Positions 7,512 to 47,322 of a stretch of DNA of 64,000 nt are shown one piece after another. Source of the stretch: Protonemura montana (lineage: Eukaryota; Arthropoda; Insecta; Plecoptera; Nemouridae); assembly GCA_947568835.1 (NCBI GenBank), contig OX387603.1, forward strand, positions 6,298,701 through 6,362,700, given 5' to 3'. The notes below the pieces were generated by a model. It did not search any database and was not told the DNA's origin. It saw only the letters and a list, made by a program, of their open reading frames with translations. The number at the start of each line of letters is the position of its first letter. Position 1 is the first letter of the stretch. The position numbers and the translations under genes were made by a program.

Positions 7512-7517
7512 TTTATT
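7512..7517 (-). terminator. Polyadenylation signal of the transporter gene
   Basis: AATAAA on the minus strand, 216-221 bases beyond the stop codon at 7734. This implies a 3' UTR of roughly 240 bases. Cleavage would fall near 7490-7500. Confidence 0.65.
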
Positions 7518-20100: not shown

Positions 20101-23100
20101 GCACGACATCGCAGGGCAGAGATCGACCTTAGACGTTACGTCACTGTTATAGGTTTGAGATACACTTGGTGATCTTTGGGTACACGGCTGTAAAACAATC
20201 AAAGACCAGTTATACTTTCATCTTTCAACGATACACCCATCGGGAAAAGCACTGAAACATGTCCCAGTACCGTACGAAACCACTGGATCAGCGAGGCATA
20301 GCCTTTGCACTTCACCTAGGGGAGTATTGCTTATGGAAGTAAAGCGTATACCCGGATCCCCAGCCCTGAATTACCCAGTCGATCACGGCATAGCCGGATA
20401 TTTGCAGATTTATGTTACCACCTTAGATGCGCGTATCTCACGAAGGCGTCAAGAGGCGAGCATCAGTTTACTTGCAGAAAATATTAAACGCTTATCGGGA
20501 CAGGATCTCGTAAGTAAATTACACTGCACCTGCAATTACTGTCTAGGTGCGTGAAATTAATGGCGTTAGTATGCCTTCGTTGCGTTATGAATTGATTATT
20601 AAATTATCTGCACATGATCATGTTCATTCTGACACAAATCATATCGACTTTCAAACGCGTTCCTACTGCCACCTGGATGCAACGGACGGAACAGCTGATT
20701 GCCGTAGGGAGGGTGATCGTTTGGCATCGTTCCGGAGTGCTCGTGTTTACAACAACGGTTGGACACGTCCGTCTGTCACCGGCAATAACTCAAGACGGTG
20801 CTGGCGGATTTACCGCGCGCTCGGAATCTGCATTACCGCCCTTTGGACGGTCGCCGTTGCACTCTGAGCTACATCAACAAGTTGCTGGGAGACTAATGGC
20901 AACGCGCGGAGACAAATAGAAATAAAAGTACAAGCAGGCTGCGTGGGAAGAATCGGCTAAAAGAGTTAATACATACGGCTACTTGAGGTTACTTAGAAGG
21001 CAGCATTTTCACTAATCTGGTGTATAGATTTGATGTAACATCCAGGTATCGGAGTTTGTGATGCAATTATCAGCTAAAGTCCATTGATTCCATGGAAAGT
21101 ATATACCGATTATGACAAGACTTTTTGATAATTGTAAAATGTTCATTTTAGTGAACAAAGTGTTAAGTACGCTACAATCTCTTTCTGCAAGATCTTCGTT
21201 GAACACAGATTAGCTGCTCTAAACATTTTGGGTGCATTCATGGACTTTGGTATCAATACCGATCTCTCATTGGGGGAAGCTGTTGGTCTGAGGAAACATA
21301 TTCCGAGTAACTCGCCTGGTGTCTTTCCAGGCTCATTTATAAAACTTTGAAAAATGAAGTAACACTGATTTGATTAAAATGCGATTTCGAATCAAAGTGC
21401 TATAAATGCCAGCCAGTCATACCGAATGTAAGACACTCAACGACATATCCTGACCAAGCCCAGCCAAAGAAAGCAAACGCCCCTCCGCCTACAATCGAGA
21501 CGAACGCCTCCATATCCATTACCAACGTCAATGAAGTCCTGGCGTGGAAATTGCGCCTGCATCTCGACGAGGGTGACGCCGACGGCGCCGTGTAGCCCAT
21601 GAGCGAGTATCTGCACCAACAAGGCGCAAATGACCACCACCCAACCCCAACCTCCTTCGGGATAGTAATGCTGGCGGATCGTGCCGATTGACGGCGTCAA
21701 CGGGGACGGCGTCGGTTCTGGTAGTGGCGTCCTTCGTTCGACGGCGTCCCCCGAATGTACGCTGCTCGCTACCCCCGAGTCGAGGAGCTCGCAACCTGCG
21801 TAGCTGTCACACATTGCTATCTGACTTTTTTAGACACGGTCAAGTGATTTTTTCCAATGCGGTTCCTGATGGGTGCTGTTGAAATCGTTGATATAAGACG
21901 TTTGTTTTCTTCGCATTTATGACTCTTGACGCTGTCACGAGGTTGTTACTCTGGCCGGAGGTCCTAGTCGTAGGTCATAGGTCATAGGCCTAATCTATCT
22001 GATTCCCGAAACCAGATTTTTGGAACGGTGTGAAGTTTTGATCGTTGATTAAGATATTGCCAGGTTGTAGAACATGCGTCCGCTAAGTCGAGGGCGTTTT
22101 TACATCATTGATCACATTTCTTTTAACCCATTTCTCCAGTTTCTGCACGAGTAATGTGTCACCGCACGAAATCTTTAAATACAAGCAACAGCTGAACACA
22201 GAGTTTTTTTTCCTACGGCACGCGCGTTTGTGCATCCGCTTTTTCAATTGCCAGGAAAACCGTTGCGATTAATTAGTTCAGCTCGAGTCGACGTCGTCCC
22301 GGCGCCGCGCGGCGCGTCGCGACGCTTGGATTGAGCGTCGTGCGATGCACTAAATGTCTTAGCGCCCTTTTTGGCGTGTGTCTCCATGTTGCACCCCAAG
22401 AGTCAGGTGTGATCGAGGAGGAGCCATACACAGCACAGCACGTTCATAGCCGGGGATTGTGAATTCAATTTGCTCATGGATTGGCCACTCCAACAAGAAT
22501 GTATTACCCGGTAAGGTGAGTTCCATTACATCTTGCCTCGCTTCTGATTCCGATGTTAACTCACTTAAACGTCGACAAAACCGTTATACACGTACGAGAC
22601 GTTACATTAGATTGGCTTTTCCATTCCCGTTATTTCCCGGTGGCATTTTCTCCAAGAAGATACGTCTTTCGATAAATCCTTTACGTCGCCAAAGCAAGGT
22701 GCTCGAGTTTGCTATTTGGATGAGACTTTCAACTCCAAACAGACCACAGAAATTGCACCTGAACGAAACTAGCTTGGAAGTGTCGCTAAAAAAACTCCGA
22801 CGTTTCTAAAGCATTTGGCTTGAGCCCGATGCCGCAGACGTTCAGTGGGGTACACAAGTCGGAACTCCCGGTGCTCACAAATAATTATCAAACACTGAAC
22901 GCGTACACAGGAATAGCTGCACCCCAGACGTTAATCAAAGATGCTAATGAGGTGGGATGCACTCGCCACGTTGCACTTGCACACGATGCACCCGCGCGCT
23001 GCACCAAGTAACGAATTACTCGCAGACGTACAGGAGAGCTCCGAATTTATCTCATTTAAACGCTAATTCGGGAAGCTAAATCACGCTAATTGCTGTACGT

Positions 23101-26100
23101 ACACAACTAGCACAACGAATTTAATGACGTTCCTTTGAAGATGGGTGACAATTTATCACGAAAATTTCCCACACGCGATACGTGCTAATATTATTTGTTA
23201 ACTTGCATATGAATAATAACTTGTACGAGTTGTAATTTGTCAAAGCGGAGAGAGCGATAGGCAAAAGAAAGGCAATAATTTAAGAATTGTGTGCTTTGAG
23301 TAAATTTTGAACGCGTCGTCGACGGCGTCGTCGTGTTTGTAGCCGTGCGCGTGGCTGGCAAACGTAATCCGTAACCGTCGGCGTCCGCGGCTTCGCGGGA
23401 ACTGAGCGTCGTTCGGTGGCGTCCAAGCGTATAGTGTCCCCGTCCCCCGACCAACCGGCCACCCGCCAGCCAATCGGCGGCTACCACGGGGGCCACGTGT
23501 GGAAAAGCCGAAGGGCGGGAAAACGGGGACGCTTTTCCGCTGCAGAGTCAGCCAAAGTCGCGACGTCTACGGATTTATGTCAGCGGGGAAAATGAAAACA
23601 GGGGGGTCTTATGACACTCAGCTGTGTATGTGTAAACTCACAAAAACTCTTTTATTGTGTTTTGGGAGTATTCTGCAACAATAACAATCCAGCATTAGAA
23701 TCACAAAACTTCTTCAATTCGATGAAATTGTTGTTAGCAAATCATGGCAAATACTGAATGGGGACAGTTCCGGATTGACTTGTAAGTACAATTCCTTCTT
23801 ATGTAGGATACGTTTTTGCAATTCTTACTTCCTTCGCCAGTGGGTCGGTACTTTCTCAAATCTTATTGCCTCATAAACAAATGTTAAAAGTATTCGTTTT
23901 TACAATCAGTTCACCCTTATAATCCCTCGTCGACGAAAGTGAGCAATAAAGTCAAAAATAAAAATATTTTTAGCCACAACATGCTATATCCACATTATCC
24001 AGTGAAATATTAATAGACCCACACATAACGTAGGAATCAAATCAAAACTATTTACCTATCAACCGCAAGCCAATTAATATGCCCACTTTGTTTAAGAAAT
24101 CATCTCGTCCACTTACTGAATCCATTTCGAAATCACCTGTGACTTGGACAGCAATAAAGGCAAGTTTATTTGGTTAGGCTGATACAACATTTAACGCGGC
24201 TGCGGCCGCTTACGCCGACGCCGACGCCAGTTGACGCGACGCCAGGCGCCGCAATCAATTAGGCATCGTGGCGTCGGCAAATCACGTCACGCGCCGTCGA
24301 TTTCAGGCGTTGCGCGTTTATTGCACGCATGCAAGTGACTGCGCGTGACTGCGCGTGGCTGCTCGTAGCTAGCAAGTGGCTGCGCGTGGCAGGAGCCACA
24401 TAATAAAAGTGTGGGTTACACAGCTTCAAACGGGAACGATTGCATCTGCTTCTCACGGCATTGGATCTTCGTTCAAATCACAAATGATTTCGAATCGATC
24501 TTGACTTCCCACACGAAGTCAGTGAGCTAAATAATTGACACAGAACGAACTCCTGTCATTAATACGCTGTCCGAGTACTTGGCACATGAGGAATGTTCTA
24601 ATACTAACATTTTCAAGCTATGGATAATATTTCAGACGTCAGAATTTGGAAATTTTTCAGTGTGGTAGAGATGTAACATCGTAACAACGGTTTGTACACA
24701 AAATAGCTGCTGTCTGATGGCATGTAGTTGTCGCGTTTATACTGTCGGGCTGTTATGGCGTTGTCTTACTGTCGGATGCTGCGTGGGGGGATGTTTTGTA
24801 TTGCAGTCGAACGCAGAACTCTCGGTCATTCCTTTAAGTGCACGCACTATTGCGAAGGGGTGCGTTAACTTTGACGATTCCACGATGGCATGATACAGTA
24901 GTTTCAGAATAAGAACCGCCACTCACCAGTTAAAGTGGCCGACCGCACAGCAGTCTGGCAACATTAACCCTTAAGTGTTTAAAGGTTAATGTTGCAAGAA
25001 GGTTGTGTGATCGGCCATTTTGAATTGGGGTTCTTATCCGGAAAATGCTGTACATATATATCCTATGTGTGTACTTACACGCAGCCATCGGAGCCCGGCG
25101 GACGTTGGTTTTGTCAGCTGATTTTTACGGCAGACAAGATTTAGAGGGCGCTTTTAATGGCGAATGAATTTCCCAAAAGTCGCGACGGCATAAAAGTGAA
25201 ATTGCCGGCGAGCGAGCGAGAGTCTGAATCGCTGTTTGTCAAAACCTCCTATCGAGTTTAGATATCTCTATAAGCATTCGGCGGGAGCGCGCGCGTCTTT
25301 TTTACGCGAAATTTATTATACTAGACACGTGAAAGTCAGATCTGCGAAAGCAACCCTCCCGAAAGAAAGCCTCCTAACACTAAACGTGACCTCCCTTTTT
25401 CCGGTGTTCACTCTTTCTTGTCTCTCTTTTCCTTCCACGTCCGCGCTTCATCCTTCATTCACCTTTCGGAGCAGGAAACAGCGAAGTCGTCCGAGCGCTT
25501 GAAGACTCCGTTTTGTGCTGTCCTAAGACTTACTTTTGTTGAGATAAATAAAATTACTCTCGTCCAGAACGAGGATGTTATCCCGAACGCTTGAGATTCG
25601 TGAATAATAATAAATCTTTTTGTTCGTTGCTCTGGTAAAGTACGTTAGTAGGGGGGACGAAATGGACCCTGGACCTGGGGATTGGGTCTTATATGCCGAA
25701 TGTGTACCTGGCAATATTCGTACTGTCTGGAAGTCATAATGGTGCTCGTGGTCAATGTGGATACCTGGCCTGATGAAAGTATCTTTATTCCACTTAGGTC
25801 GTGGGTCCATAGGCTTCTAGCCAAAGTGTGGCAAATCAGCTCTTCCCTGGGGATGGTCTACTCATGCCTTGGAGAGTTGAGAGCAAATCTACCTATATAT
25901 TGGCACCACAAGGTAAATGTTTGACTATTCCAGTGGCTTCGATAGAAGCTTGCAATTAAGCCGCTTCCTTCGCGCTGTCAATGTTGATGTCAAGATGGCG
26001 CTCGTTTGCGATTGACGTGGCATTTGAACAGCTGAAAGAGCTGACGTCTCCCCACATTATGACGTTCGAGCTGAGTGCGTTGGTTGAACCGCGAGCTCGA

Positions 26101-29100
26101 CAAAACGCTGTCATAATCCGGACAAATATCCGGCAGGCCCGCGCTTCTCAGGGGTGCAGAGATATTTTTCAGATTTTTTTCGGCTATAATTCGCATCTGG
26201 TATATAGAAAGTAGTTTCCTCTTTGGCCGCCTGGCGCGCTGCCAATTGTGGATGGAGATGTTAGCCTTCCCATTCTGGTAATTGATGGTTTAGTCAGGGC
26301 AGACAAACAAATTGTGACATCAGCATAGAAAATGTTATGATTTCCGTTTGAGGTGGCTATTTTTGGAGAACGAATTTAAGTTGCATTTTGCTGAAGAAAA
26401 CCTGCATTCATTTTGATTTGTCTCATATGTTTACATTGACCAAAGCTTTAAAGAGTGTTTTTATGACTAGTTCCATATGAGAATACCAACCACGACACGG
26501 GATGAATTAAATTAAATAGCTATTAAAAGTCTGGTGTTCCAGTATATTGCAACTTACCTTGCCTTACCAATGGCATGGTTTACCATATATTTACATCGTA
26601 TTTGTAGGTTAAACATGCACTCATATCTTTAACCTCTTTCATATAATTATTATTATTGTCGTAATTATGAGTCTCCTGTTACACGCAATTGCCACAAGTG
26701 GCTCCCCAAGCGATGACACTTGCGCAATGATTACGTCCCATTTCAAACGGCGTTGATTCCTAGAATTTTCAGACGGTTCAAAAGAAAAACCTGTGCCCAG
26801 TACGGGATTATCTGTTACAGCAAAATTCTCTTTGCCAGCTCGGCAAAAAGCAGCAGGATTTCCGCAATCTCCGACCGTTGCGTAGTACATCACCATGATT
26901 TCCACGCAAATCACTTTCAGCAAAAAGGCACAGCTGATTTACCACAACGACGCACAATCCGAAACGCGCCCGCAGACATGGCAAAAAGTGCGTCCGACTT
27001 TGGTGTGATTTAAAACCCGCGTGCGACAAGAACACCGAATTCCGGAATAATCACCGGCACCAGGCTTTCCCGAATTAAGTCTGGAACGTTTCTCACGCTT
27101 CCTGTGGCAAGTAAATACGGGGCGATGAAAATTAAGAATGTACACATCTCAAGTCCTAGGCCAAAGAGAGATAAATCTATGTCAACACTATTTCGGCGAT
27201 AATTAAAAACTATCAACAACTGCAGCATAGTAATTCAAATGGAAAATAAAATTGCATCAAACAAATTACAGGAGTACCTGCTATCTTAAATATTTTGCAC
27301 TTAGCATATTTTTTCAACAACTCTTAAGACATGTATAGCATTAAACTATTTTCTAACACTCTATCATGTTTTCTCGTGAGCACTGGACTTCGTTTCAAGG
27401 TCACATTGAACTTAGACTATTGCTATTTTCTTTTGCAGATACCGACTTTTTCTTATGATGCATTCGACAAACTTGATTTGGTCAATGTTCACGACACGTA
27501 CTCAGTGATAATAATTACTGAAGAGATGTCTTCATCATCTAACCCCGAAGGTGACATATTCGTTGCATACGTTTCAAATTGTAACACATAATGATGGTAG
27601 CATCAATGTCGGCAATAAAGTGATTACCTTCCACGCCGCACCGCGCGCTAGGATCGCGACTGGAATGAAAAGTAATGGCTGGCAATTGCGTATGGCATTT
27701 GGCGCCAACGTGATGGCGTTGCACACTTGCTTTGTGAGGCATGAAATCCTTGTTCCGTTGCGCCCCCGCGCGCCCCACACAGCGCTGCGATCGAGTCACC
27801 GGGCATTGCGAAAAATAAGAGCATATTTACGACTCGATTACAGCTGACTAGACGCGCTAGTCCCATGTACCGGCGAACGGGAAATGGCCGGGAAAACGGA
27901 TGGGAAAAACCTCGGCAGTAAACGGCCGAACCAATTACGGCACGACTCCTTTCAGAACATAACGCTATTGATAGATGTAACAAAATGTAGATATGAATTG
28001 AAGCCACAATAGCGAACGAGAGAGCTTGGTTTTCTCGACTTGGCTCATTTCATAGTGTAATTTTATGTTGACCCATCGAATGCTAATATCTCGGCACTAC
28101 AAAAGCTATAGGCACGCACCACCCGCGATCCCTTTTGTTTTTATCTGTGAATAAAGTCTTCCAGAGACTCGACGTTCAAGCGCTGAAGGAAGACGGCCGG
28201 GTGATTTATTGCTATGGCAACCGTTCAATCGGACTAGATTTATGTCTGGCTAGGCTCGGTCGCGATTTGTTCCAGACGGTCCTCTTTCGCCAAACAGTCG
28301 CCCAAGGCCATAAAAAGCATCGCCCAGAAGGCCGTGCTTTCACGAAACCTACAACAAGGCCGTGCTTTCACGAAACCTACAACAAGGCCGTGCTTTCACG
28401 AAACCTACAACAAGGCCGTGCTTTCACGAAACCTACAACAAGGCCGTGCTTTCACCAAGGTATGTACAAGCACTTGATATGATGTAGCGAATCTTGAAAA
28501 GAGATTTCACTGTTGGGAAAAGTCCTATGCTCGCTTTTCCGCGTGACAGCGTTGCAACCAGAGCACCGAGAATGCTCGCTGTACGCGTCATACCTTCAAT
28601 TGCGACAGCACTAGAAATGCACGCGTGACGGCATTGTCCTGTCGTAGTGTAGCGAGCTCCAAGCTGGCGATTAAAGCCGTGGTGAAAGAGGAGCACCCGA
28701 ATTTGTCAGGTCGAGGGCGCTCTCTGTCGCACTCTCTTTTCTTCTGCACGCTTCATTGTTTTTGGGGGCCGCGACGCAAGAACCGCGCGGTTCGCCTTCT
28801 AGAGCGATTAAATTGCAATTAGGTTTCCGGAACGCGGTAGAAAGAAGCGGCTCTGGTGCGGAGGGCGACAGCGTGGTCTGCGCAATTTCTTTCTCTTGCT
28901 GAAGATAGAGAAGAGCCAGGAGACTGTAGTTATAGGGTGGTGGAGGTGCCGTGCTGAGGGTCAATGACAGTGTTCAAGTTAAGAACGTGACAGTTAAACG
29001 GTGACTGGTCAATGTATACAGAAACGTGTACGGTGTGGATTTAAAACACTTTGTCTATGATAAGAATGTTACGAAGTCATGACTGACCGCATAACCCTCG

Positions 29101-32100: not shown

Positions 32101-35100
32101 ATTGGCCGCCATATGCAGATCAGTGCGTAATTCGCATAATATCAAGTCTATAATAGAATAATAATGTAATATAATAATAATATAATATAGAATAATAATA
32201 TAATATAAATATGATAATAGTTTCTTGCTCAGTTACATGATTTGGAATACTTGCATCGATGAGTTTGAACATAAACTAGATTTTAAAACTTATTTGGAGA
32301 CAGAATAAATTTAAAAAAACTATTTACCACCGAACGATTTGGCGTGTCGTAAACACCGGTTCTCGTGAGATCACCGAAGTTAAGCAACACTGCGCTGAGT
32401 CAGGTATTGGATAAGTTACCATCATACACATGACCAGTTCTGTTCGGTAGAGAGATTGGAGGGATGAAAGTTAGTACAGCAACTTCATTCGCCTCGCTTA
32501 TCAATCTCTCAACAGCATAGAATTGTGGAGGAATCCTGCTGTTCGGGTTGTACCGTTCTTCGGAAGAGACATGAAGCCGGTGGTCCCCTTGGTGCTCTTT
32601 GACAGGTGCCGGCACCAGGTTTCCCCTCCTCCCTTTTAGTTTAGATTAGGTTCATCGTCCTCATCATCATCCACTCATTCACCGACGCCATGAGACCAGT
32701 GCCACAGGGCCCGCTGTCAAAACAGTGCGTCGTTAAACACCATAAAGCAATCAATCAAACTACTTACCTGTCAGTTGTCACATAAATAATAAAAATTACC
32801 CTGGAGTCATTGAAAGATTGATAATTTGCTATACACTTGAGTTTTGCGGTCGCATACGCATTCGCAAAATCATACTTGCCTAGCCTAAGTGAGGCAATTG
32901 TCTACAGGCGGCGTGTACAGGCGGCGTGTACAGCTGTAACTGCAGACGAAATTTGCCGCATGTGTGTTTAGCATACATATTCTAGAAAATCGTGCAAAAA
33001 CGACGAGAAGAAAACGAATGGCAATGGCATGAAAGTCGTGGTAACGAATTATCGGCAATTCATGGGTGCTACGCAAACGATTTCTTCTAAATATGGACTT
33101 GCCACATAATTTCGAGCGTAATTTCACGTGACGTCCAATTTTCGTTCTCATCATATTATAATAAATAGTCGACTTAAGTAGGAGGTACGGTAGAAAATAG
33201 AGTCATCATTCTTGGTATAATCGTGCAGAGTACGAGTATGGGGCATCTAAAAATGCTTGTTTCACCACGCTGCACATCTCTTCGGCAAGCTCTCAGTTCG
33301 GTGAGTCTTAAACCCCAGCTAAAATCATTCGCGGTCCAATTTAGCAACATATTTATTTGACACTCGCTTCGTCCAATCTTAAGATGCAATCTTGGGCTCA
33401 ACATATGTGTTCAAATTTAGAAGAGAACGACCTCCATCCAATTTTTATTTTATAGATGGCTGGATGAGTCAGAAAGAAATTGAAAATTCTAGCCACGTAG
33501 AGTTTTTGGTAAACAACGGATATATATATTAAGTTTAAAACCCCATTTAAAAATCACTGGAAAAGCAGATGAATTTCATGGGTTTGCAACAAAATTTAAT
33601 TGCCTGAAACCCGAAACTTGCAAACTATAACACTGTTCGTTTTAATTTAAACTTTTCATTAAAATATATTTGTGTCGGTGTGCCTTACTGTGTGTCTCGA
33701 CTGTTAATTACGCGCCTACACGAAATTTAACCCGCCCAGCGTGAGGTCGTCGGTTTAGCAAAGGTGCAAGTTAGGCGAGGTGTCTGCTCTGGGACATGTG
33801 TCACCGCTGACAGGTCGCTAACAGGGTGTCCCGTCTCATGCCACCCAGCCGGCCACCCAACCCGGCCCTGACACAATGATTCACGACGTTCGCTCGTGAC
33901 GTCGCGTTTGATTAACCTTTGGACTCTGAGCAATGTGTCACGCAGCGCACTGCTGCGTGGCAGGGTGCGTAGCCGGGGACCAATCAGCGAGCTAGGACTA
34001 CAAATCTTCAACTGATCAACGGTCCTTCTGGCTTTTGTCTGGCTGTCAGTCGGGAAAATTTGTCCGCTTGGATCTCACACCTCACTCTAAAGCCACGTTC
34101 AGCTTTTATATATACTCCTAGCCTCATTTTATTGGAAATCGGCACTTGATATCGAGGAAATGAAGTCAACTTCACCCTGAAGCGTTATTGCTAAAACTGC
34201 AAGTAGCAAAATTGGCAATTCTTGCGATATTGAAATCTGATCTGATCTGAAATAAATTCACCAACTTGATTATTTTCTATGTAAAGTGTTCTGGTATACA
34301 GTGCATGGCTTTGAAAAAAGTATGTTTTTAATATTTTTAATGAAGAAATAAAGTTGATTTGCGTGAGGTGTGGGTCTGATAGCATGAATAGCATCAAAAG
34401 GATTTGGTAACTTAACTATTTTTAAGCTCTCCTCCCTCTCGGCGAGTGTCGACGTCGCAATCTTTCCGAGACGGACAGCGCCAATCGATTGAAGTCGCAA
34501 ACGAGGAGCATCGCCACCCTGAGCTGAAGGAAATGAAGGTGGCTTTCTGTGGGAACATTTCACTCGGCGTCGAGATGAGATGGAATCATTTACTTTTGTC
34601 AGCGGGAACAATTGAACAAAGAGTTTTCTTCACGTTGAACTTAGCGAAAAGTTAAGTAGCGCTGTTAGCAGACTTGACGGTGGTGCCAAGTGGCGAGGTG
34701 GAGGAGCCGGGTTCTATTGCATCTGGATGTGAATTTGTAGCCTGGTAGTAGATTAGAGGAACGTAGTAAATGAAAAGAAAACGTGTAGACTTAAAAATAA
34801 AAACGCCAAAATATGTAATTTGTTCGGTGAACATTCGTGCTCTGGTTTACCATGTCCAAACGGGTGGACTTGTTTGAAAGCAGTTTTCAAGATTCTTTTT
34901 AATTTCTTCACTTTATTCTGCTACTTATTTGGAAGAGATGAGCCCAAACACTTTTTTAAATGCCGGTTTTTACAACAACAACAAAACATTGAACTTAACA
35001 AACGTCTTATTACTTAACAGATGTTAGCCAAACTTGCGAAAAGGATTTATCTCCTTAAAATTTACAATGCCTTAAAATTCAAGTTCCGCCATTCTTTGCG

Positions 35101-38100
35101 TCTCCACGCTACATTTAATAGGGAATCGAGTTCTTTTTTGGTTCTCTAACATTTCTTCAAAACATTTTTATTTTCTTTAAGACAATGTATGTGTTGTACA
35201 TGCTTAGCTACATGTCTCTCAACACGCCTGTCCTAAAGCTAAGCTTGACAATATCGTGCACCTGTTTTTCAAAACAACGGCAAGTAAAGGGTCGCCAATG
35301 CGATTGCGAACAATATATTTTATCATCAATCCAACAAGCGCGTCACACCGTTATTGGATCCAAACGCCCGAAGTTAGCCGTCTGAGGGAGCTAGAGATAG
35401 ATTAAGAAGGATATGTCTTGAAAAACCAACTTAATCCCTCAACTTAGAGTTATTAATACTTTGCCTTTTCCCACAAGGGCACAACAATCCCCCAAGTCCC
35501 TCGACCCTCCATTGCGTTCAGCTGGTGACTGGAGGAAAATCGAGAAAAGTCGTCGATGTGTTTTCCCGGTCATCGTTTATCAGCGGGGAAATAACTTGTG
35601 CTGAAAAGTAGACTTTTATGTGTGTGAGCGCCGGATCTCCTCGCCTGCCTCATAGGCTAGGTTAGGTTCATCATCATTCTCGAAATCATTCTCGAAATCT
35701 GCTATTGGTAGGACTCTTCCAGCACAGTTTATTATCAGTGTTCCTAATGATAAAATAATTAGACCATTACAAGGATTTGTAATTTAAAAAACGGATTTCA
35801 AAACACAGATTATAATACTTAAGGACAAAGATATTTTGTGGTCATCCATAAAGTAATTTTTCAGAGTTAGAACAATGATCGATGTCACAACAGCTCAGCA
35901 ACAATAAAGTATCAGCCTCAATGCGTTAATGTTGCAAAAAGACTATGAGATCGGCCATTTTGATAGGTTGATCTACGAGTGAGGATACTATATACTGTCA
36001 GAAAAGTAGTCTGATGCAACGTATAAAAACAACTCTGTCGCTATTCTACTGGTATTTATTAATTTCATAACTTCTTCGCGAAACCGATAAATCACTGTGT
36101 TGATTTTCGCGAGCACGCCCCTGTGAGATTGTCCCGCCACTGCTTCGCGACTCGAGACGCGGAATGCTAAACGACGCCGGTAATTGCAGCGAACCGACAC
36201 AGCAGGTAATTAGCCATTACACCCGTGAAACGTAACAGACGCGCGGAGCCAATAATCGGCGAGTGAAACGGCAATTTTAATTGAACTCTCAGTTCATGGA
36301 GACCGCTTTCAATCCGTTCCTGCGGCACTCGATAAAAAGTAATGTGGATTTTTCTTGCGAAATCTTGAGACTAATTTCATCAGTAAAAAATGGTGAAAAA
36401 AAAAGTAACTGTATAGAATTTTATCTTTTGATCTTCATTGACTTTCCAATAAAAATAGAGAAATCTGTAGAACTATTGAGATAAAGGCGAGGTTAAGAGA
36501 CTGATCTTTTGAGGTTTGACACAATGTTGTGAACACATATCAGATTTCAAAGAATCAATCGTCAAAAATATTGTCTAAATAGTACTTAGGGGAAAGCTCG
36601 AGTACCGTAGAGGTGAATCACATTGAATGCTGTTTTACCAACCCTTTCAACAACATGGGTACGTGGAGGAATCCTGTTGTTCGAATTCCACATATTTCCT
36701 TGGTGCTCATCGCTATAGACAGGTGGCTTGTCAGCACCGAGTCTTCCCTCCTATACCTTTAGGCTAGGCTGGAATCATCATCATCCTCATCGTCACCCAC
36801 TCATTCCCGCCATGATCACCGGAGGCTACAATCCATCACTAAACACCACAAGGCCGATTAATATAGCACCAGCCCCACTAACCGGCATATTGATAACACC
36901 AAATACGATAAACAACATGCTAAAACAGCGAAAAAATTAAATTTTCTCGTGGAAATGTACAGAAAAATGTGAAGCTTGTGTTAGGGGTCATCTAGGGAAC
37001 ACCAAACTAAAGCGAAGTTAAGCAACACTGCGCCGGATCAGGTATTGGATGGGAGTTCATCACACGCATGACCAGTTCTGTTCGGGAGAAAGGTTGGAGG
37101 GATGAAAGTTAGTACCACAACTTCATTCGCTTTGCTCTCGACGGCATGGATTTGTGGAGGAATCCTGCTGTTCGCGTTGTTCCGTTGTTAGGTAGGGGTC
37201 GTTTTTTCGGTGGTCCCCTTAGTGCTCTTCGACAAGAGTAGGCTACGTGCCGGCACCAGCTTCCTTCTAGGCTACTCTCCTAGGTTCTTATCATCATCCA
37301 CTCATTCACCGACGCCATTCGACCAGTTCCGCATGAACCGTTTTCAAAACAGAGCGTCGTTAAGCCCCAATATTCAACCAACCAAACTAGAGCCTTCAGC
37401 ATCTTCACAAGAAGAACACCAGAAATATCTACATCATTGCAGGGATCACCACAAACCCCAGAGCTTTCAGCGTCTCTCCCGGAGACCGGAGGTCCGCCGA
37501 CCGGCCGACCGACCGACCGACCGGCCGGCCGACCGACCGACCGGCCGGGTTCGAGCTCGCGTGGCTATCATTTTATCGGCTTGCTGCCGCGTGTGTACCG
37601 GTGGCTACCGTTACAATGGTTCGGTGACGTCACAGTACTCGTGAGAGTCGCGGGATCGCATTCTGAGATGGGACGCAGTCGGCGACTCACTCGGCTAGCC
37701 GGCCGAACGAGGTGCTCCGGCACTGAACCCCTAGCCGGCCGAACGAGGTGCTCCGGCACTGAACCCGTGTGTAGCCTGGAACGCCGACCAGGGCTTCGGG
37801 GTGAAACCACCAAGGGGTTTGACTTCAGACCGGGTTTGGCTCGAGTGACATGTGTCCGAAAATGTGTGCTGTTTTGATATGCATACCCGTAGGAGAAACA
37901 CGTGGAGGAAATCACGTTTAGCTTTTACAGACGATCATGTAAAGAAGTACATCTGACATTTGTAATTATCTAAGGAAATTATCGTTTTCTAGGAGAATTG
38001 TTACCAATTGCTTCAACTCACTGAAACATCTTAATTTCTCTGTATGTTATTTGAAATTACCATGACGATTGTTCCAACTAACCGGGCCTAAATAAAGTGT

Positions 38101-41100: not shown

Positions 41101-44100
41101 CGGTGAGACCGACTTTTGTTTTTACACGCTTTGAAGGTGCGCTCGAGTTCGATTGGTATACTAATTGATTCAACACACATTTCCGGCACTGGGGCAACTG
41201 GCTTGTTGGGGCAATCGGTAAAGCGATCGGCGCTCACTTGGGACAATCTGATCCCGATGCGGTAGCGAAGACAATTGACTCCATTTCCTCAATTAGAAGA
41301 CTGATAAAATACTAAACGTCTTAAGTCGCCGGGGATATAATCGCCATGTCACGACGCTGTAGATTCCGACGCATGCAGGAAGGCGCCAGGCGGTGTCCCC
41401 TGGGGGTGTTGGGTTCGGGGTCGGCCACCCATCGCAAGGTGTCGAGAGGCACAACAAGGTGCTGACGCCCCTGGTTTATTGCCTTGCGGCCAGATATCGA
41501 TGTTTGGCGGACATATGAGCGGCGTCTTGTTTCGATAGGACCATGTTTATGCAGATTTCACGAGCGAAAGAATGTGTTCGACGGTTTTCTTTTGTACCTA
41601 TAGTTGGGTGGTTAAACTTCGAGTATCCTATTTATGACCAGACCAGCATGTACAAATTTCTCGACTCGTGGTTGAAGTGTTTTCTTTTTTTCATACAAAT
41701 TCAAATGCAACTACCAATTACATGCAGATAAATTCAGTTGGTTTCTGTACGTATGTTAGGAGTTTTCTTGGATTTTAGCATTTTTGATCATACCGGGCCT
41801 TGAAGCTACATGTCTTTATGTATGAGTTAAAGGAGGACTGGACATATTTAGGATTCATATAAATAACCAACTGTATCGATAAACTTAACTTCCAAATGAA
41901 CCGTGGATTGAAAACGTTGTAAATTCGAACATACAATGTAATTCAATGTAAAACCATGCAAATTAACTGAAACTGAAACTGAAACATAAAAAATAAACTA
42001 GCTACGTCCAAGATAGTAAATTTTATCGAAAGGACAGGAGAGCTGGTAAAGAGCTATTTTTAATGTCAGAATTGCAGTAAATGCATGGTTTTATTGATCT
42101 CGTTTTATGGGGGATTTTCTGGTGCACTTATCAGAAGATCTTAAATTATGTTGAAACCCAGAAATTACCTAGTGAACGATAAAGTACAAGCATGCTGTTC
42201 TTAGCTAGTAGTAAACTGCAAGATGCTTTCAAATCGACAGAGCGCACAAACAGATTCAACGCTACTACTTGGCAAGTGCATCGTAAGACAGAAGTGCATT
42301 CGTCTGGATGCATTTTGATGAGTGCATCCTATCTGTCCGTCATAAACCCTGACAACACATGAAGCTATTTCGACGGAATGAAGAAATCGCTGCATTCGGA
42401 ATCGGGATCGAATAAAATGCAATGCCAAAAACAATCGGCAAAGTTCGCCTCGCTTCGCGATTGAGACGAAAGTTTTACTGTTTACTAAAAACATTTTTAG
42501 TTGTAAACTTCTGGAATTAAATTTGTGTTTTTAAACATGGAGGATGCTGGTCTCCACTTTTATAATGTTTGGTGTGGTCTGAGTTTTCCATGTCCCATGA
42601 GTGATAAACTTAGATACACTAAACACGCGCCCAATGCAACTCTCTGTTTATATCAATGTTGTCCAGGAAGACAGAAGTCGCAAACTTTATAAAATCTTGA
42701 ATTACGATACCGACGCTTGAGGTGAACATGATAAATGAGTGTGTTTTTGGCTCCCAAGGTTTGCCATTGGCCACTTCAGTGGGAAGAAAAATAAGTTTTT
42801 ATCATAAATTGACGGAGTAAATTGGCCGCATCCATAAAGTTATCAAAATTACAAGAAAAAAGCCTTGCACACTCCTGGTCGTAAAATGAAACGTTTATTG
42901 GCAAAAGAGGTTCTGCACATAACTTCTTGGCCCGCCGAAGATTTCCCCCCCAAGCAAGTGAATTAGTGAAGGTGGCTAGTTCGAGCGTCGCCGCAGGGAC
43001 GCCCGATGCGTGTTGGACGTCGTCAATGAAACTCGAGGGTGCCGACAAAGAGCTGGCGACGTTTGCTCAAGACTTCGAGTAAAGGCAAAGGCACGGCGTG
43101 CCGATCGTCGCTGCGGATGGGGAGTTGAGATAACGATTATTAACCCTAGCTTAGAAGGGAGGAGGGTGAAAACTTCGTGTCGCCACATATATTACGTTCA
43201 GCGAGAGTGTAAACATTTTCGGAAGGGGCGCTACCGGTCGCTTTGGGTTGACGTAGGGGTTAACTGTCAATTAAAAAACAACACAAATCATCTCCGCCGG
43301 TGTCCGTCATTTTCCTTTTGCTCTTTAGCGTGTTTATGTCAAGATCTTTTGTTTCTAAAGCTGTTATAAGATTTTTGCTACCAATTATAACAATCTTAAT
43401 AATTATTTTGCATATATAACAAGTATTTTGTAATCCTTCACTGAAATACAACTGCAATTTCATTCATGAGTTGGTAACAATGCTGGAGGCAAGTCCTTGG
43501 GCTGGTATTTTCTCTCGCTGGCTAGACTGTAACAGATGTACACATCTAGAAAGATATGCCACGATTTAAGTTATGCCTACTGTAGGTTTCGTCGTTTCAA
43601 TCACTTTCCTGGAAGATTGATAAACCATTTTCTACTAATTGCAGTCATTTTTCATGTTAATGTGGAAATACGGGAAACAATAATCGATTCATCCAGACGT
43701 TATCGAATCAAAACTGTGGCTGTTCTGAGCCCAGGGGTCTCTAGACTATGACTCTGCTATCAAAAAGGTTTCCGCTTCAATTTTGGATGTCTTTATGTTC
43801 TTTGGAGACAGGCGACTTCGTAATCTTAATAAAATATACGCTCTTATTTGTTGTATGATTGTGTATGAAACATAAACATGAATGTTGAAACTTTTGCTCG
43901 CGGTGACCCAGTTCTGCAGCCGGGAGCGAATGATATGGGATGGGCGATGTCAAGGGTTATATTTGCAGCGCGTCTGGCTCCAAGTTTAGCCCTATTGACA
44001 AAACTGCAACTCGAGGAAATCGAAGTCGGCGCCTCCACATCAGTCGGTCGTCGACACACGTAACTTGTTGCCTTAGCGGTGATCGCGTTGATCGTAGGTA

Positions 44101-46391
44101 AATTTGTTTTCCACCCCTGACGGCTGCTGAAATCAATCACCGGCCGGCGCGCTTTGCAAATAAGAGAGCGCTAGTACGAGGAAAAGTACGTGGTATCCGC
44201 GCAAATAAATGCTTTTTGCTCCCTCTCTTCCATGAAAATCAAACAGTCAAGACAGATAATAATATTTGACTTGCTGTCTGGCGACCAGCGACTCTATCAC
44301 ATTATTGAACGACGTTCCAACTTTCGGAATCGCCGAACTCGCGCGGTGGCAATTTCTAGATGTCATTATCCATGCGATTCAACGACGCTATTAATCTCCC
44401 TTTGAAGCTCAACCCCTCTCTACGGAGTGCGGAGATTATGCGAGATCGCCCTCCACCATTTCTACAATGATAACATCTCGGCTTAAACAGCCAAGCTTAA
44501 TTGGCAATTTCAAATGGGCAAAATTTAACCGGCGGCTTGGATCGGCTAATATTATATAGAGATTCCATATCGTAGCAGTTATTCTAATTAGAATGGTGAG
44601 CGCGAATAAACCATGTTCCCTTGCGCTCGGACATTCGATATTGCGCTCTAGACGCCAACGTGAACCATGGGATGGAAGCATGGTGAAGCACGCAATTGCT
44701 CGAACACGCAATTGCGATATCAATAAATAAAGCGTTCACCTTTCTTGCGATATGTAGAATCGGAATCAACAAGAACTTATTTTAATAACATGCACGTTCT
44801 TTTTTTTTAAATCTAGATGTGATTCGCGATACATGCACTATCATAGCTGTATTATTTCCTTTGGGTTGAACGCGATCACTCCTGTCTTAATTTATTCGCT
44901 TCAATTGAGTTCCGATAACTCCATCAGTAGTAAATGCATTAATCCCGAGTTTTTTTTTTACTGCGCTTGACATGCATCTTTAATGGTGCAAGGCAACGAC
45001 ATGATCATGCTCGATTTGTCAACTGCCTGCGTGGCTGACACATGGCATCGGATCGGTATTCCGCGGTTTATTATATCAATGCCAGAGACTCATTTTGCTA
45101 CTCGAGAAAGTCGCAGAGGAAACAGCAATCAGTCGAAAAGGTGTTTGTCCGCGGCGAGCTATTGCCCCTTATAAAATATACGATCGGACTGGAAATAAAA
45201 TCAAACAAAATAGACATCCTCGCTCTCGGCAAACAAGAACAAAGAGTCTCTGGCAGACATGGTAAGATTAATATTCTTATATACTTTATATATTATTCAA
45301 ACTTATAAAATATCACATGCACTCCGGTCGTCGCGAGTGCAGCGGCCACTCGAGTGGAAGATCAACATTGCAATCGATGATCTACGATCCTGAGCTCTTC
45401 GGGCGTTCAGTTGATGCACTGTTACATAACAATGGAACTTGTTGGGAAAAAATATGCGTTTCTCGAGTAACAACTGAGGAGGCATGAATGGCGAATGATT
45501 GGACGTTTCAGGTCCCCGGCAGTGAATTGCTAGCTTGACAATCAGTCCTGAATCAGCATTTGAGGGATGAGATTCAAGGCGTTCAGGAAGTGAAATTTAC
45601 TGTTTTAGAGGGGGCTATGAACGTCTCCATTTAGGTTTAGGTGAATGGAAACGAATACCTATTTCGAATTCCCAGAAGTAATTTCGTTTACGGTTTGCCG
45701 TTTATCTTCCAAATGACCTTGGAGAACGACCCTGGAACCGTTAAGGTCGAAGAAGCGAAAACACTTTTTTCGAATTGAAAAAGACGACATTTGAAACACG
45801 AAGTTTAGGAACATCACTTGTTTTCCGAAGCGCAAAGTGTATGACCGTAATGACAAAAGATGTGTAAATGAGCGCAACATCAGGCCAATTTTGTATTCAC
45901 CAAAAAGCCCCAACCTCCATCAACCAATCTCTAAGCAGATGGGCATACTGACCTGCCTGTGACTCATACTGGGCTCCGAACTTGGCGACGACCTCGACGA
46001 GGGTGATGCCGACGGCGCCGTGTAGCCCGTGAGCGAGCACCTGGACCAACACGGCACAGGTGACCACCACCCACCCCCAACCTCCTTCAGGGTAGTAATG
46101 CTGCTTCAATGTCAACAACTGTCTCAAATCAGCCACCAGCCGCGACTTGTTAGTGTTGTTGATTGTTCGTGCCTTGCTGGGTTCCCCATATCCAGGGTCG
46201 ACGATTGGAAGCTGGGGCATTGACAACGCCCTCCGAGGACCCCTCGCGGCCGCTGCGCTTGGTGACAACTCCGAGAGTTCGTCTTCGAATGCCGCCAACT
46301 GCTCCGAAGAGTCCAGATGCCGCGAGAGGGCGACCAGTAGGGCGGCACTGGCCGAGTCGCCCGAAGAAGGATCGGCGCCAATTGGCGACAT
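7734..46391 (-). CDS. Monocarboxylate transporter (SLC16/MFS), whole locus, two alternative first exons
   Basis: Gene-level entry. Seven shared coding exons (12242-12094, 11288-11104, 10548-10272, 9799-9647, 9279-9051, 8710-8460, 8120-7734) follow one of two first exons: proximal 21814-21523 (total 640 residues) or distal 46391-45953 (total 689). All phases agree. In the 640-residue form, the SLC16 signature EGGWGW opens membrane segment 1 (residues 53-58), and the second signature region YFKRRREF...SGSGLG lies near 177-196. A basic cytosolic loop (about 245-265) separates the two six-helix halves, and a long acidic tail follows the last helix. Family members move lactate, pyruvate or related small carboxylates, mostly with protons, across the plasma membrane. 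The substrate here cannot be told from sequence. Confidence 0.93.
8460..8710 (-). CDS. Transporter exon 7
   Basis: 251 bp: two bases completing Gly, then 83 codons. It holds the last membrane segments (GYYFSALCVVIGSLTLFLI) followed by a cytosolic stretch LHRRQMARHK and a Pro/Glu-rich region. Acceptor accgacag; donor GAG|GTAGGT, phase 0. Confidence 0.93.
9051..9279 (-). CDS. Transporter exon 6, ending at a GC donor
   Basis: 229 bp, 76 codons plus one base. Encodes AAVFMCGLCILALTAV, YVLFAWIYGIFAGGYHYSLK and WGFVQCSQAIPIALGVPIS, which are membrane segments 9-11. The donor is CAG|GCAAGT; no GT at this boundary keeps the frame. The next exon supplies the remaining two bases of Gly, so the GC-AG reading is supported by phase. 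Confidence 0.92.
9308..9362 (+). repeat. 5S rRNA-derived fragment
   Basis: Lies in the intron between transporter exons 6 and 5. It matches the internal promoter region of 5S rRNA: cgagttaagcaacaatgag (box A) followed by gattgggtgacc (box C). Neither 5S end is present, so it is a relic of a 5S gene or of a 5S-derived SINE, not a working 5S gene. Confidence 0.7.
9647..9799 (-). CDS. Transporter exon 5
   Basis: Exactly 51 codons, phase 0 at both ends. Acceptor ttcatgcag, donor CAG|GTGCGT. Encodes membrane segment 8 (LLQTHLGLAWTLGCCAFGLV) and the conserved VVRNSVECRIARQYLCQ loop. Confidence 0.93.
10272..10548 (-). CDS. Transporter exon 4: segments 6-7 and central loop
   Basis: One base completing Ser, then 92 codons. 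Encodes IGWRLGLQAVTGVVFVTFIL (segment 6), the conserved YRSASLYHPQRRAILHL start of the large cytosolic loop, a Lys-rich stretch (NQKRKIKDKNK), FFDFSTLRSK, and segment 7 (LLVSTGISAFGVNTPIFFL). Acceptor cgccctcag; donor TTG|GTGAGT. The cytosolic loop is shorter than in many vertebrate SLC16 members. Confidence 0.94.
11104..11288 (-). CDS. Transporter exon 3: segments 4-5
   Basis: 61 codons plus two bases. Begins after tttttgcag and ends at CAG|GTGCAA. Encodes FFSYGAVLGVGVGMTRDCST and the second SLC16 signature region YFKRRREFVEIF...SGSGLGIA. The usual LA-x-G after the basic cluster is replaced by FVEIFIV. This is a difference from vertebrate MCT1-4 and may go with another substrate. Confidence 0.93.
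12094..12242 (-). CDS. Transporter exon 2: first shared exon
   Basis: 149 bp: two bases, then 49 codons. The acceptor ctccttgcag accepts either first exon, since both end in phase 1 with G and so make Gly. Encodes WLGALSTAVALFVSPVTIAF (segment 2), the basic turn CRRKSTR, and segment 3 (VIGGLVTALGCLFTSF). Donor CAG|GTACGC, phase 0. Confidence 0.94.
12243..21522 (-). other. Transporter intron 1 (proximal isoform), 9.28 kb
   Basis: Mostly AT-rich unique-looking sequence without a credible open frame. A GC-richer island at 16170-16540 is unlike its surroundings and could be an enhancer or a non-coding exon. A pyrimidine-rich stretch lies at 12745-12970. Smaller islands occur at 14100-14240 and 20640-20900. 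Confidence 0.7.
21523..21814 (-). CDS. Transporter proximal first exon (1A)
   Basis: ATG at 21814-21812 with an in-frame TAA shortly upstream; 97 codons plus one base, donor GTTG|GTAATG. The N-terminal 49 residues are cytosolic, rich in Ser, Pro and Thr (TPLPEPTPSPLTP). HYYPEGGWGWVVVICALL and HGLHGAVGVTLVEM, membrane segment 1, follow. The segment-1 part closely matches exon 1B at 46 kb, while the N-terminal tails are unrelated. Confidence 0.93.
21972..21991 (+). promoter_or_regulatory. Triple nuclear-receptor half-site (DR1 spacing)
   Basis: AGGTCA at 21972-21977, AGGTCA at 21979-21984 and a degenerate AGGCCT at 21986-21991, each one base apart, about 160 bp upstream of the proximal ATG. 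DR1 sites are bound by HNF4 and RXR/USP-type receptors in animals. Use here is inference. Confidence 0.45.
22190..22450. promoter_or_regulatory. CpG-rich region upstream of first exon 1A
   Basis: A GC-rich block (for example ggcgccgcgcggcgcgtcgc near 22302) in otherwise AT-rich DNA, 400-600 bp upstream of the exon 1A start codon. It is a plausible promoter or 5' non-coding exon. No TATA box or start site can be named from sequence alone. Confidence 0.35.
22451..24906. other. No gene seen (upstream of exon 1A / long-isoform intron)
   Basis: Only short chance reading frames. It includes a GC-rich island at 23320-23500 and another at 24190-24260 with gccgacgccgacgcc repeats. A decamer repeat is listed separately. 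Confidence 0.5.
24335..24391. repeat. Decamer tandem repeat (gtgactgcgc), about 5.5 units
   Basis: Successive ten-base units gtgactgcgc, gtgactgcgc, gtggctgctc, gtagctagca and gtggctgcgc drift in sequence but keep their spacing. CpG-rich minisatellite. Confidence 0.75.
24907..25041. repeat. Fold-back (MITE-like) element
   Basis: Left arm 24907-24969 and right arm 24984-25041 are imperfect inverted copies over about 58 bases, around a 14-base loop. The arms share aagaacc, ggccga and gcaacattaacc. Relatives lie at 35923-35988 and 57053-57092. It is probably a non-autonomous DNA element or a dimer of a short repeat. No clear target-site duplication was seen. Confidence 0.75.
25042..28327. other. 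No gene seen; CpG-rich patches
   Basis: Contains a CpG-rich patch at 25080-25290 (cggcgagcgagcgagag), a patch at 25960-26140 and another at 27630-27800. The open frames here are short, unspliced and unlike known proteins. Conserved regulatory DNA of the long transporter intron is possible. Confidence 0.4.
28328..28457. repeat. 28-bp minisatellite, about 4.6 copies
   Basis: Unit aaggccgtgctttcacgaaa plus cctacaac, starting at 28328, 28356, 28384 and 28412, with a partial fifth from 28440. The complete copies appear identical, so the array is young. Because 28 is not a multiple of three, the open frame across it cycles through three repeat translations and is not a real protein repeat. Confidence 0.95.
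28458..31579. other. No gene seen
   Basis: AT-rich sequence with a GC-richer patch at 28600-28830 and short chance reading frames. Nothing recognisable was found. Confidence 0.5.
31580..31615. repeat. Perfect 15-bp inverted repeat
   Basis: tatagcaaggtgcta (31580-31594) and its exact reverse complement tagcaccttgctata (31601-31615) flank tatcaa. Further partial copies of agcaaggt and aaggtgcta lie on both sides (31563-31570, 31620-31628). This suggests slippage around a hairpin. Confidence 0.85.
32150..32216. repeat. AT microsatellite (ataata/taatat)
   Basis: Irregular run built almost only of ataat and taata units, just upstream of a 5S-derived SINE. Confidence 0.8.
32339..32760 (+). repeat. 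5S rRNA-derived SINE, copy A (near full length)
   Basis: The head matches the second half of 5S rRNA: gatcaccgaagttaagcaac (box A) then gtattggataagttacc (box C region). A family-specific body follows (tggaggaatcctgctgttcg, ggtggtccccttggtgctct), then a tail ending in caatcaatcaaac. This layout is that of SINE3-class elements transcribed by Pol III from the 5S internal promoter. The tail probably came from a partner LINE that I cannot name. Confidence 0.8.
32761..35639. other. No gene seen
   Basis: Long-isoform intron with short chance frames only. A GC-richer patch occurs at 33740-34000. There is no confident repeat boundary. Confidence 0.45.
35640..35695 (+). repeat. 5S-derived SINE, fragment D
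   Basis: Matches the late body of copy A (ctcctcccttttag and ttaggttcatc region). It ends in a short internal duplication of attctcgaaatc. Confidence 0.5.
35923..35988. repeat. Half copy of the 24.9-kb fold-back element
   Basis: gttaatgttgcaa, then atcggccattttga, line up with the right arm at 24985-25030. Only one arm is present. Confidence 0.65.
36648..36865 (+). repeat. 5S-derived SINE, copy C (no 5S head)
   Basis: Shares gtggaggaatcctg, ccttggtgctc and catcatcatcctcatcg with copy A but lacks the 5S-like start. It is probably 5'-truncated, as is usual for retroposed copies. Confidence 0.65.
36978..37387 (+). repeat. 5S-derived SINE, copy B (near full length)
   Basis: The 5S-like head agcgaagttaagcaacactg and ggtattggatgggag is better preserved in its box C part than copy A. 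The body and the tail (gcgtcgttaagccccaat, then caaccaaccaaac) follow. Copies A and B differ at many positions, so both are old. Confidence 0.8.
37494..37549. repeat. CCGA/CCGG tetranucleotide tract
   Basis: About 56 bp of ccgaccga units with interspersed ccgg. It starts about 105 bp after SINE copy B. Confidence 0.9.
37695..37766. repeat. Tandem duplication of a 36-bp unit
   Basis: The unit beginning ctagccggccgaacgaggtg is repeated exactly, at 37695-37730 and 37731-37766. GC-rich. Confidence 0.95.
37767..39060. other. No gene seen
   Basis: Moderately GC-rich, with open frames up to about 100 codons (for example minus 38377-38078). They lack splice sites, known motifs and repeat affiliation. 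Confidence 0.4.
39061..39330. repeat. Decayed tandem repeat, period about 58 bp
   Basis: The core tttacgg (last copy tttcgg) recurs at 39081, 39137, 39196, 39257 and 39305. Similar upstream words (atgccaacatgt, acgccatcacatg, atgccaccattta) and downstream words (ggggttat, ggcgttat, gagttat) recur with it. It is an old minisatellite with roughly five units. Confidence 0.65.
39331..45952. other. Long-isoform intron, no gene seen
   Basis: AT-rich with short chance frames. Minor items: a CAG/CAA run at 40348-40370, a triple gaaact run at 41965-41985, and CpG-rich patches at 42970-43120 and 44010-44060. None carries a splice-supported coding exon that I could defend. Confidence 0.5.
45953..46391 (-). 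CDS. Transporter distal first exon (1B)
   Basis: ATG at 46391-46389; 146 codons plus one base, donor CAG|GTCAGT with GCA-G phase 1, identical in phase to exon 1A. The cytosolic N-terminus (about 97 residues) is unlike that of 1A: Ser/Ala-rich with an acidic helix-like part (EQLAAFEDELSEL) and RRALSMPQLPIVDPGYGEP. It then encodes QHYYPEGGWGWVVVTCAVLV and HGLHGAVGITLVEV, a second version of membrane segment 1. The open frame extends upstream without another in-frame ATG. No other downstream transporter exons exist between here and 21.8 kb. Confidence 0.88.
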
Positions 46392-46423
46392 GGTGCAGGA
46401 ATCCGCTGAGCGGTCACCATGGT

Positions 46424-47290: not shown

Positions 47291-47322
<32 letters not shown>

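What the first reader, a model, noticed from the sequence alone, without database searches (positions are those of the whole stretch)
21523..46391. Duplicated first coding exon gives a transporter two versions of membrane segment 1
Two exons 24 kb apart each start with their own ATG and each encode HYYPEGGWGWVVV plus the HGLHGAV helix. Both end in phase 1 and have only one set of downstream exons to join, at 12242 and below. The segment-1 parts are near-identical, whereas the N-terminal tails are unrelated. The simplest reading is an exon duplication that produced two promoters with swappable N-termini, letting one gene make isoforms with different targeting or regulation. Segment 1 carries the SLC16 signature, so small changes there (ICALLVQI versus TCAVLVQV, EMQAQF versus EVVAKF) may affect transport.
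Basis: partly seen in the sequence, partly recalled or inferred. Interest (0 to 1): 0.75.

Follow-up and report, generated by a model that had tools for sequence, protein, structure and literature searches.

The report
Transporter gene with two starter exons
A gene for a membrane transporter in an animal-like genome carries two alternative starting exons, each with its own tail and its own copy of the first membrane segment, so it can probably make two versions of the protein; the general arrangement is known from other genes, and RNA evidence is still missing.

Summary
On the minus strand, two first coding exons (D 46391-45953, P 21814-21523) each run from their own ATG through an SLC16 signature and membrane segment 1 to a phase-1 donor. 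Both join in frame to the only body found in the window (12242-7735, seven exons), giving 689- and 640-aa proteins. The body matches solved MCT2, MCT10, MCT8 and MCT1 chains.

The shared DNA is one 111-bp block (99/111 identical) with unrelated flanks. Inside it dS is about 0.34 and dN 0.06. The 40 nt after it have equal length in both copies but differ at 25 sites. This suggests an older pair with a homogenised core, a partial duplication, or a fast-changing loop.

Best reading: alternative promoters with variable first exons. Only the P tail has a PEST-like stretch and a DSGVAS motif, so I guess that isoform P is short-lived. Residues matching MCT2 Tyr34, Lys38, Asp293 and Arg297 are His, Gly, Trp and Cys, so this is probably not a proton-lactate carrier. 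No RNA and no relatives could be examined. A new member of a known kind, of moderate interest.

The parts
45953..46391 (-). distal first coding exon D: 96-aa tail MSPIGADP...LLTLK, then Q, HYYPEGGWGW signature, segment 1 and loop 1; phase-1 donor CAG|gtcagt
   Evidence: tail GC3 0.67
21523..21814 (-). proximal first coding exon P: 47-aa tail MCDSYAG...GTIR, then Q, HYYPEGGWGW signature, segment 1 and loop 1; phase-1 donor TTG|gtaatg, weak
   Evidence: tail GC3 0.72; donor scores
45993..46103 (-). 111-bp block shared with exon P (99/111 identical), copy in D
21563..21673 (-). 111-bp block shared with exon D, copy in P
45953..45992 (-). 40-nt post-core part of D (loop 1), 25 of 40 sites different from P
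21523..21562 (-). 40-nt post-core part of P (loop 1), same length as in D
12094..12242 (-). common exon 2 (GWLGAL..., segment 2)
11104..11288 (-). common exon 3
10272..10548 (-). common exon 4
9647..9799 (-). common exon 5
9051..9279 (-). common exon 6, followed by a GC-AG intron (CAG|gcaagt)
8460..8710 (-). common exon 7
7734..8120 (-). common last coding exon, ending at TGA
7512..7517 (-). AATAAA, candidate poly(A) signal
46127..46420 (-). upstream ORF of 98 codons (stop not included), out of frame with and overlapping the D start; possible brake on isoform D if the transcript starts above it
   Evidence: start, context AACCATGG and codon number; low end computed from them
21677..21730 (-). 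P-tail stretch TPLPEPTPSPLTPSIGTI, PEST-like (score 8.14); a DSGVAS motif lies upstream of it in the same tail (residues 12-17); candidate turnover signals
   Evidence: scoring constants, threshold and motif meaning recalled; nucleotide bounds computed from residue numbers

Best explanation
This is one animal SLC16-type (MCT-like) transporter gene with two alternative first coding exons, each presumably driven by its own promoter and spliced to the same seven downstream exons. Each isoform has membrane segment 1 with the family signature, but a different cytosolic N-terminal tail and a different loop 1. Shown: the anatomy, the frame and phase match, and the absence of a second body in the window. 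Inferred: that both promoters are used, that isoform P (640 aa) is the regulated, shorter-lived form because of its PEST-like/DSGVAS tail, and that isoform D (689 aa) is the longer-tailed form, perhaps under a uORF brake. Evolution (inferred): an older duplication of the exon's 3' part whose 111-bp core was later homogenised by gene conversion, with the tails acquired separately.
For: Two full-length open isoforms with the same phase-1 junction. No other SLC16 exons in 64 kb, and everything downstream of D on its strand down to coordinate 1 lies in the window. An in-frame stop codon before each ATG with no intervening in-frame ATG. No polypyrimidine tract at CAG|CAT in either copy (pyrimidine 0.44 and 0.50, against 0.63-0.81 for 7 of 7 predicted acceptors of the gene and a mean of 0.50 before 3400 AGs), so these do not look like internal exons. 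Tail GC3 0.67 and 0.72, body 0.73, window GC 0.43; codon scores matched or exceeded in 6 of 205 (D) and 8 of 1783 (P) overlapping stop-free non-exon windows. Core dN/dS about 0.17, NG86; LWL85 gives dN 0.050 and dS 0.42. The only phase-1 GT within 150 nt after the core in D is at +40, and the best-scoring of P's five phase-1 GTs is also at +40. Post-core divergence is too high for the core's dS: P = 3e-6 at dS 0.34, 8e-5 at 0.42, 0.025 at the upper bound 0.71. Precedents: the long N-terminus of human MCT8 was linked to proteasomal degradation in overexpression (PMC8440930, passages); clustered protocadherins and chelicerate sDscam use a promoter per variable first exon or cassette (PMC4835542, abstract and section 9).
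Against: No RNA. No convincing core promoter: in 800 bp upstream neither exon has a TATA or full Inr match; there are only TCAGT at 46521 and 46794 and a loose DPE match at 46874 for D, and loose DPE matches at 22359 and 21924 and one pause-button-like match at 22083 for P. The D-tail codon score in the reading frame (0.032) is barely above one of its other frames (0.001), whereas P's is clearer (0.197 against 0.031 and 0.047). A phase-1 GT at exactly +40 could be luck (about 1 in 16, my estimate), and post-core identity of 15/40 is only marginally above 25% (P = 0.054), so homology of that part is not firm. PEST and DSG motifs are post hoc.
Confidence: 0.72

Rival explanations
1. Only one exon is the working first exon; the other (most likely P, with the weaker donor) is a recent, little-used or decaying copy.
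For: P's donor is weak and its upstream region shows no clear core promoter. dS of 0.34 (bootstrap 0.12-0.71) allows a fairly recent origin.
Against: P is fully open from ATG to donor. Its core differs from D's with dN/dS of about 0.17, and its tail has coding-like GC3 and codon score. One intact copy under constraint could by itself give a ratio below 1, so this is not proof.
Confidence: 0.17
2. The duplicated exons are internal, mutually exclusive exons that begin at CAG|CATTACTA, sharing an N-terminal exon further upstream; the apparent tails are intron.
For: The similarity starts exactly at CAG in both copies, as a duplicated acceptor boundary would. The D-tail codon score is weak.
Against: Pyrimidine content before CAG is at or below background, unlike the gene's 7 predicted acceptors. 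Both tails stay open to an ATG that follows an in-frame stop and have the GC3 of coding sequence.
Confidence: 0.06
3. Partial duplication (a rival about history only, so it can be true together with the two-isoform reading): only about 111 bp were copied into a new place, where a fresh tail, a fresh loop and a pre-existing donor were recruited.
For: Similarity falls to near background on both sides of the 111 bp. Post-core identity is 15/40, P = 0.054 against 25%.
Against: The donor sits at the same +40 and the same phase in both copies.
Confidence: 0.25
4. Assembly artefact (two haplotypes or a misjoin).
For: None found.
Against: In 8 kb and 9 kb around the two exons nothing beyond the 111 bp is alike at better than E 0.21.
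Confidence: 0.02

Closest known systems
SLC16 / monocarboxylate transporter family (MCT2, MCT10, MCT8, MCT1)
   Same: Whole-length sequence match to solved MCT chains, E 3.6e-33 to 1.2e-22; EGGWGW signature before segment 1; YFKRRREFVEIFIVSGSG aligned with MCT2's second signature
   Different: At the aligned positions of MCT2 Tyr34, Lys38, Asp293 and Arg297 this protein has His, Gly, Trp and Cys; the first two lie in the swapped exon and are the same in both isoforms (read from the alignment; residue numbers and roles from PMC7228944 passages)
Insect CG8468 / dyspepsia SLC16 subgroup
   Same: Recalled resemblance only; could not be compared here. CG8468 is tubule-enriched and the likely fly ortholog of Aedes dysp (PMC8055033 and PMC522876 passages); its activation gave rapamycin resistance in Drosophila cells (PMC10118385 passages and section 8)
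   Different: The words isoform and exon do not occur in the dysp paper's main text; orthology with this gene is untested
Variable-first-exon genes (clustered protocadherins, chelicerate sDscam; UGT1 recalled)
   Same: Several first exons or cassettes, each with its own promoter, joined to constant exons (PMC4835542 abstract and section 9)
   Different: Here only two, 24 kb apart, in a transporter, and promoters are not shown
Human MCT8 long/short N-terminus
   Same: An SLC16 whose N-terminal variants were proposed to control turnover (PMC8440930 passages)
   Different: In MCT8 the long form only adds N-terminal residues (613 against 539 aa) and is unproven in tissue; here segment 1 and loop 1 are swapped too
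Human SLC16A7/MCT2 alternative promoters
   Same: An SLC16 gene with two promoters (PMC4673295 passages)
   Different: The MCT2 isoforms share the whole coding sequence and differ only in 5' UTR

Membership tests
SLC16 (MCT) family | Major facilitator fold by profile | tested here: met
   Pfam MFS_1 E 3.7e-22, 79.1 bits against a cut-off of 33.4, for isoform D
SLC16 (MCT) family | Closest solved relatives are MCTs | tested here: met
   12 of 16 PDB sequences listed at E<=0.001 are MCT1/2/8/10 and they are the best 12
SLC16 (MCT) family | Signature DGGWGW-type motif leading into segment 1 | tested here: met
   PEGGWGW in both exons; motif definition from PMC7228944
Proton-coupled lactate/pyruvate MCTs (MCT1-4 type) | Lys38 with the Asp/Arg pair of segment 8 | tested here: not met
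   Gly, Trp and Cys at the positions aligned by phmmer; residue roles from PMC7228944 passages
Variable-first-exon (alternative promoter) gene | Two or more first coding exons that can join the same body in frame | tested here: met
Variable-first-exon (alternative promoter) gene | A working promoter before each first exon | not testable with these tools
   motif scan uninformative; no RNA or reporter data
Mutually exclusive internal exons | Acceptor site before each copy | tested here: not met
   an AG is present but no pyrimidine tract at CAG|CAT
CG8468/dysp subgroup | Grouping in a family tree | not tested
   no insect sequences available here; name recalled

The most novel reading that the evidence does not exclude
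The locus is a two-state module. Choosing the first exon swaps at once the tail that sets protein lifetime (P with PEST/DSG-type degron, D without) and the part of segment 1 and loop 1 that faces the transport path and the partner subunit. The four core replacements fall on one helix face close to the Lys38-equivalent position (clustering P about 0.009; with orientation about 0.0009; post hoc, ideal helix). The core is kept alike by gene conversion while loop 1 diversifies, so that one gene offers two transporters of different kinetics and stability.
Probability: 0.12. Interest if true: 0.6.

Novelty: new member of a known kind. Interest (0 to 1): 0.36.

Why it matters
If both isoforms are made, a natural pair of proteins differs only in the tail, a few residues of membrane segment 1 and loop 1, on an identical body. 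In MCT2 the start of segment 1 reaches into a pocket of the partner subunit and segment 1 helps to form the cavity (PMC7228944 passages), so such a pair would let one test what that segment contributes to coupling, selectivity and turnover. It also offers a case, dateable once relatives are compared, of an exon pair with a like core beside a diverged loop.

Tried and rejected
Assembly duplication: rejected, flanks unrelated. A third set of transporter exons in the window: none found. Internal mutually exclusive exons: disfavoured by acceptor quality. Relatives: 0 confirmed in viral contigs (2 pattern matches) and 0 in genome contigs (98 pattern matches); by description these hold viruses, bacteria and archaea, so this says nothing about age. 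Own genome not held. Pfam on each exon alone gave nothing at E<=10; a PDB search with exon D alone gave nothing at E<=0.001, and P alone was not tried there. Core-promoter motifs gave no decisive sites. tRNA scan: 0. Other genes: 309 further stop-to-stop ORFs of 60 aa or more were found, the longest 60 were printed, and only 10 of the 309 were scanned with Pfam; none reached a curated cut-off. The 14-3-3-like RxxSxP match in the D tail was dropped as evidence, since 9% of shuffles have it. The DSGphixS motif occurs in 0.1% of shuffles of the P tail, but it was picked after looking. My first splice model was one base short at the end of exon 2 and gave a broken frame; corrected.

Literature: ten searches. 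Those aimed at this question found 0, 173 with 20 listed, 4, 2, 45 with 20 listed and 0 papers; among those listed I recognised none, by title and start of abstract, that describes alternative first exons encoding segment 1 of an SLC16 transporter. These are keyword searches of an open-access subset with capped lists, and automatic genome annotations were not searchable. The Chaski paper (PMC5775259, one passage) had nothing on isoforms.

Full report
WHAT IS THERE. A six-frame motif scan finds the SLC16-type signature at only two places, both on the minus strand. Exon D runs from the ATG at 46391 to 45953 and exon P from the ATG at 21814 to 21523. Both end one base into a Gly codon that exon 2 completes (G|GGTGG). 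Joined to 12242-12094, 11288-11104, 10548-10272, 9799-9647, 9279-9051, 8710-8460 and 8120-7735 they give open proteins of 689 and 640 aa; the stop is TGA ending at 7734. The seven predicted acceptors are AG with 63-81% pyrimidine ahead; one intron, after 9051, is of the GC-AG type. An AATAAA lies at 7517. No genome is held for the window; that it comes from an animal, perhaps an insect, is my inference from the introns and the transporter.

IS THE BODY UNIQUE. tblastn of both isoforms against the window returned the nine exons and nothing else with E below 0.95. Because the gene is on the minus strand, any partner for D inside the window lies below 45953, and only the one body is there. Exons beyond coordinate 1 cannot be excluded.

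WHAT KIND OF PROTEIN. Isoform D hits Pfam MFS_1 (E 3.7e-22). The best 12 of the 16 PDB sequences listed are MCT2, MCT10, MCT8 and MCT1, the best at 3.6e-33. In the ungapped segment-1 alignment to MCT2, the positions of Tyr34 and Lys38 are His and Gly in both isoforms; the positions of Asp293 and Arg297 are Trp and Cys (read). In MCT2, changing Tyr34, Lys38 or Arg297 cut transport, and D293N cut proton-driven symport but not counterflow (PMC7228944, passages). So this is an SLC16 relative but probably not a proton-lactate carrier. The resemblance to Drosophila CG8468 and Aedes dyspepsia is from memory and was not tested; papers on those genes were read as passages and one section (section 8 of PMC10118385).

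THE DUPLICATED PART. blastn and local alignment find one 111-bp block, 46103-45993 against 21673-21563, 99 of 111 identical; nothing else in the 8 kb and 9 kb around the exons is better than E 0.21. Ten-base bins match at 1 to 4 of 10 in the 60 bp before it and 1 to 5 of 10 in the seven bins from its last base onward. Within it NG86 gives dN 0.056 and dS 0.336 (bootstrap 95% 0.12-0.71 for dS, 300 replicates), LWL85 dN 0.050 and dS 0.42, and 17 of 20 shared four-fold sites are identical where codon usage alone predicts 6.9. The four amino-acid changes are T/I, V/L, V/I and I/V.

A SHARP CHANGE AT THE LOOP. After the block each exon has exactly 40 nt before its donor, and the two differ at 25 of 40 (Fisher against the core 7e-10). 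Even neutral change at the core's dS predicts 27% difference, so 25 or more of 40 has probability 3e-6 (0.025 at the upper dS bound). Three histories fit: an older whole-3'-end duplication whose core was homogenised by gene conversion; partial duplication with a recruited donor; or selected diversification of loop 1. The equal length and phase favour the first, but weakly, because a GT at a given place is not rare. Relatives would decide. In the duplicated exons of Dscam arrays 4 and 6 no gene conversion was detected (PMC3236188, passages), so conversion should not be assumed.

FIRST EXONS OR INTERNAL EXONS. The similarity begins at CAG in both copies, which could be an old acceptor. But the 16 nt ahead are 44% and 50% pyrimidine, like the background before 3400 AGs (mean 50%), while the 7 predicted acceptors of the body have 63-81%. 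Both tails are open back to an ATG that follows an in-frame stop with no earlier in-frame ATG, and their GC3 (0.67, 0.72) matches the body (0.73). The codon score supports the P tail (0.197 in frame against 0.031 and 0.047) but hardly the D tail (0.032 against -0.092 and 0.001). I read both as first coding exons with separate promoters. Motif scans of 800 bp could not show the promoters themselves: no TATA or full Inr, and only loose single-motif matches.

WHAT THE SWAP MIGHT DO. The P tail has one PEST-like stretch (score 8.14; the three D stretches score below 0) and a DSGVAS motif (pattern in 0.1% of shuffles); both are post hoc and rest on recalled definitions. The long N-terminus of MCT8 is a precedent for turnover control, though its existence in tissue is unproven (PMC8440930, passages). 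D has a 98-codon uORF that overlaps its start out of frame. The four core replacements lie on one helix face near the Lys38-equivalent (P about 0.009 for clustering, 0.0009 with orientation, 200,000 draws), but the test was made after seeing them, and MCT2's segment 1 is a discontinuous helix. In MCT2 the signature and the start of segment 1 contact the partner subunit, so effects on coupling are plausible and untested.

VERDICT. The architecture is known from protocadherins and sDscam (PMC4835542, abstract and section 9), and an alternative promoter is known in human SLC16A7 without a protein change (PMC4673295, passages). What is less usual, as far as my limited searches show, is that the swapped exon carries a transporter's first membrane segment.

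Noticed in passing
window 1-1524: Large inverted repeat: 1-1153 matches its own reverse complement at 94% and 566-1524 at 85%, with 1-513 also matching 934-1443 directly at 87%; a palindromic foldback-like element or an artefact at the window edge.
   Followed up: no
window 32329-32449, 32375-32762 and 37013-37389: A 5S rRNA match (50.4 bits, gathering 38), well matched in its first half, overlaps a 75.7% direct repeat about 390 bp long with a second copy 4.6 kb away; looks like a 5S-headed SINE (SINE3, recalled) inside the large intron. No 5S match was found at the second copy.
   Followed up: partly
window 24894-25052: Imperfect 159-bp palindrome, 71% identical to its own reverse complement.
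   Followed up: no
window 2330-2404 and 2619-2693: 75-bp direct repeat, 80% identical.
   Followed up: no
window 28328-28455: Perfect tandem array, 28-bp unit, 4.6 copies.
   Followed up: no
window 47291-47320: Run of 30 G on the + strand about 900 bp upstream of exon D.
   Followed up: no
window 9049-9051: GC-AG intron in a gene whose other predicted introns are GT-AG.
   Followed up: partly
window 37284-37874: Longest open frame outside the gene among those listed (197 aa), rich in Pro, Thr and Arg around a CCGA-type tandem repeat, overlapping the end of the second SINE-like copy; no Pfam match above cut-off; a mir-341 match on the other strand (37481-37574) is far below its gathering score.
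   Followed up: partly
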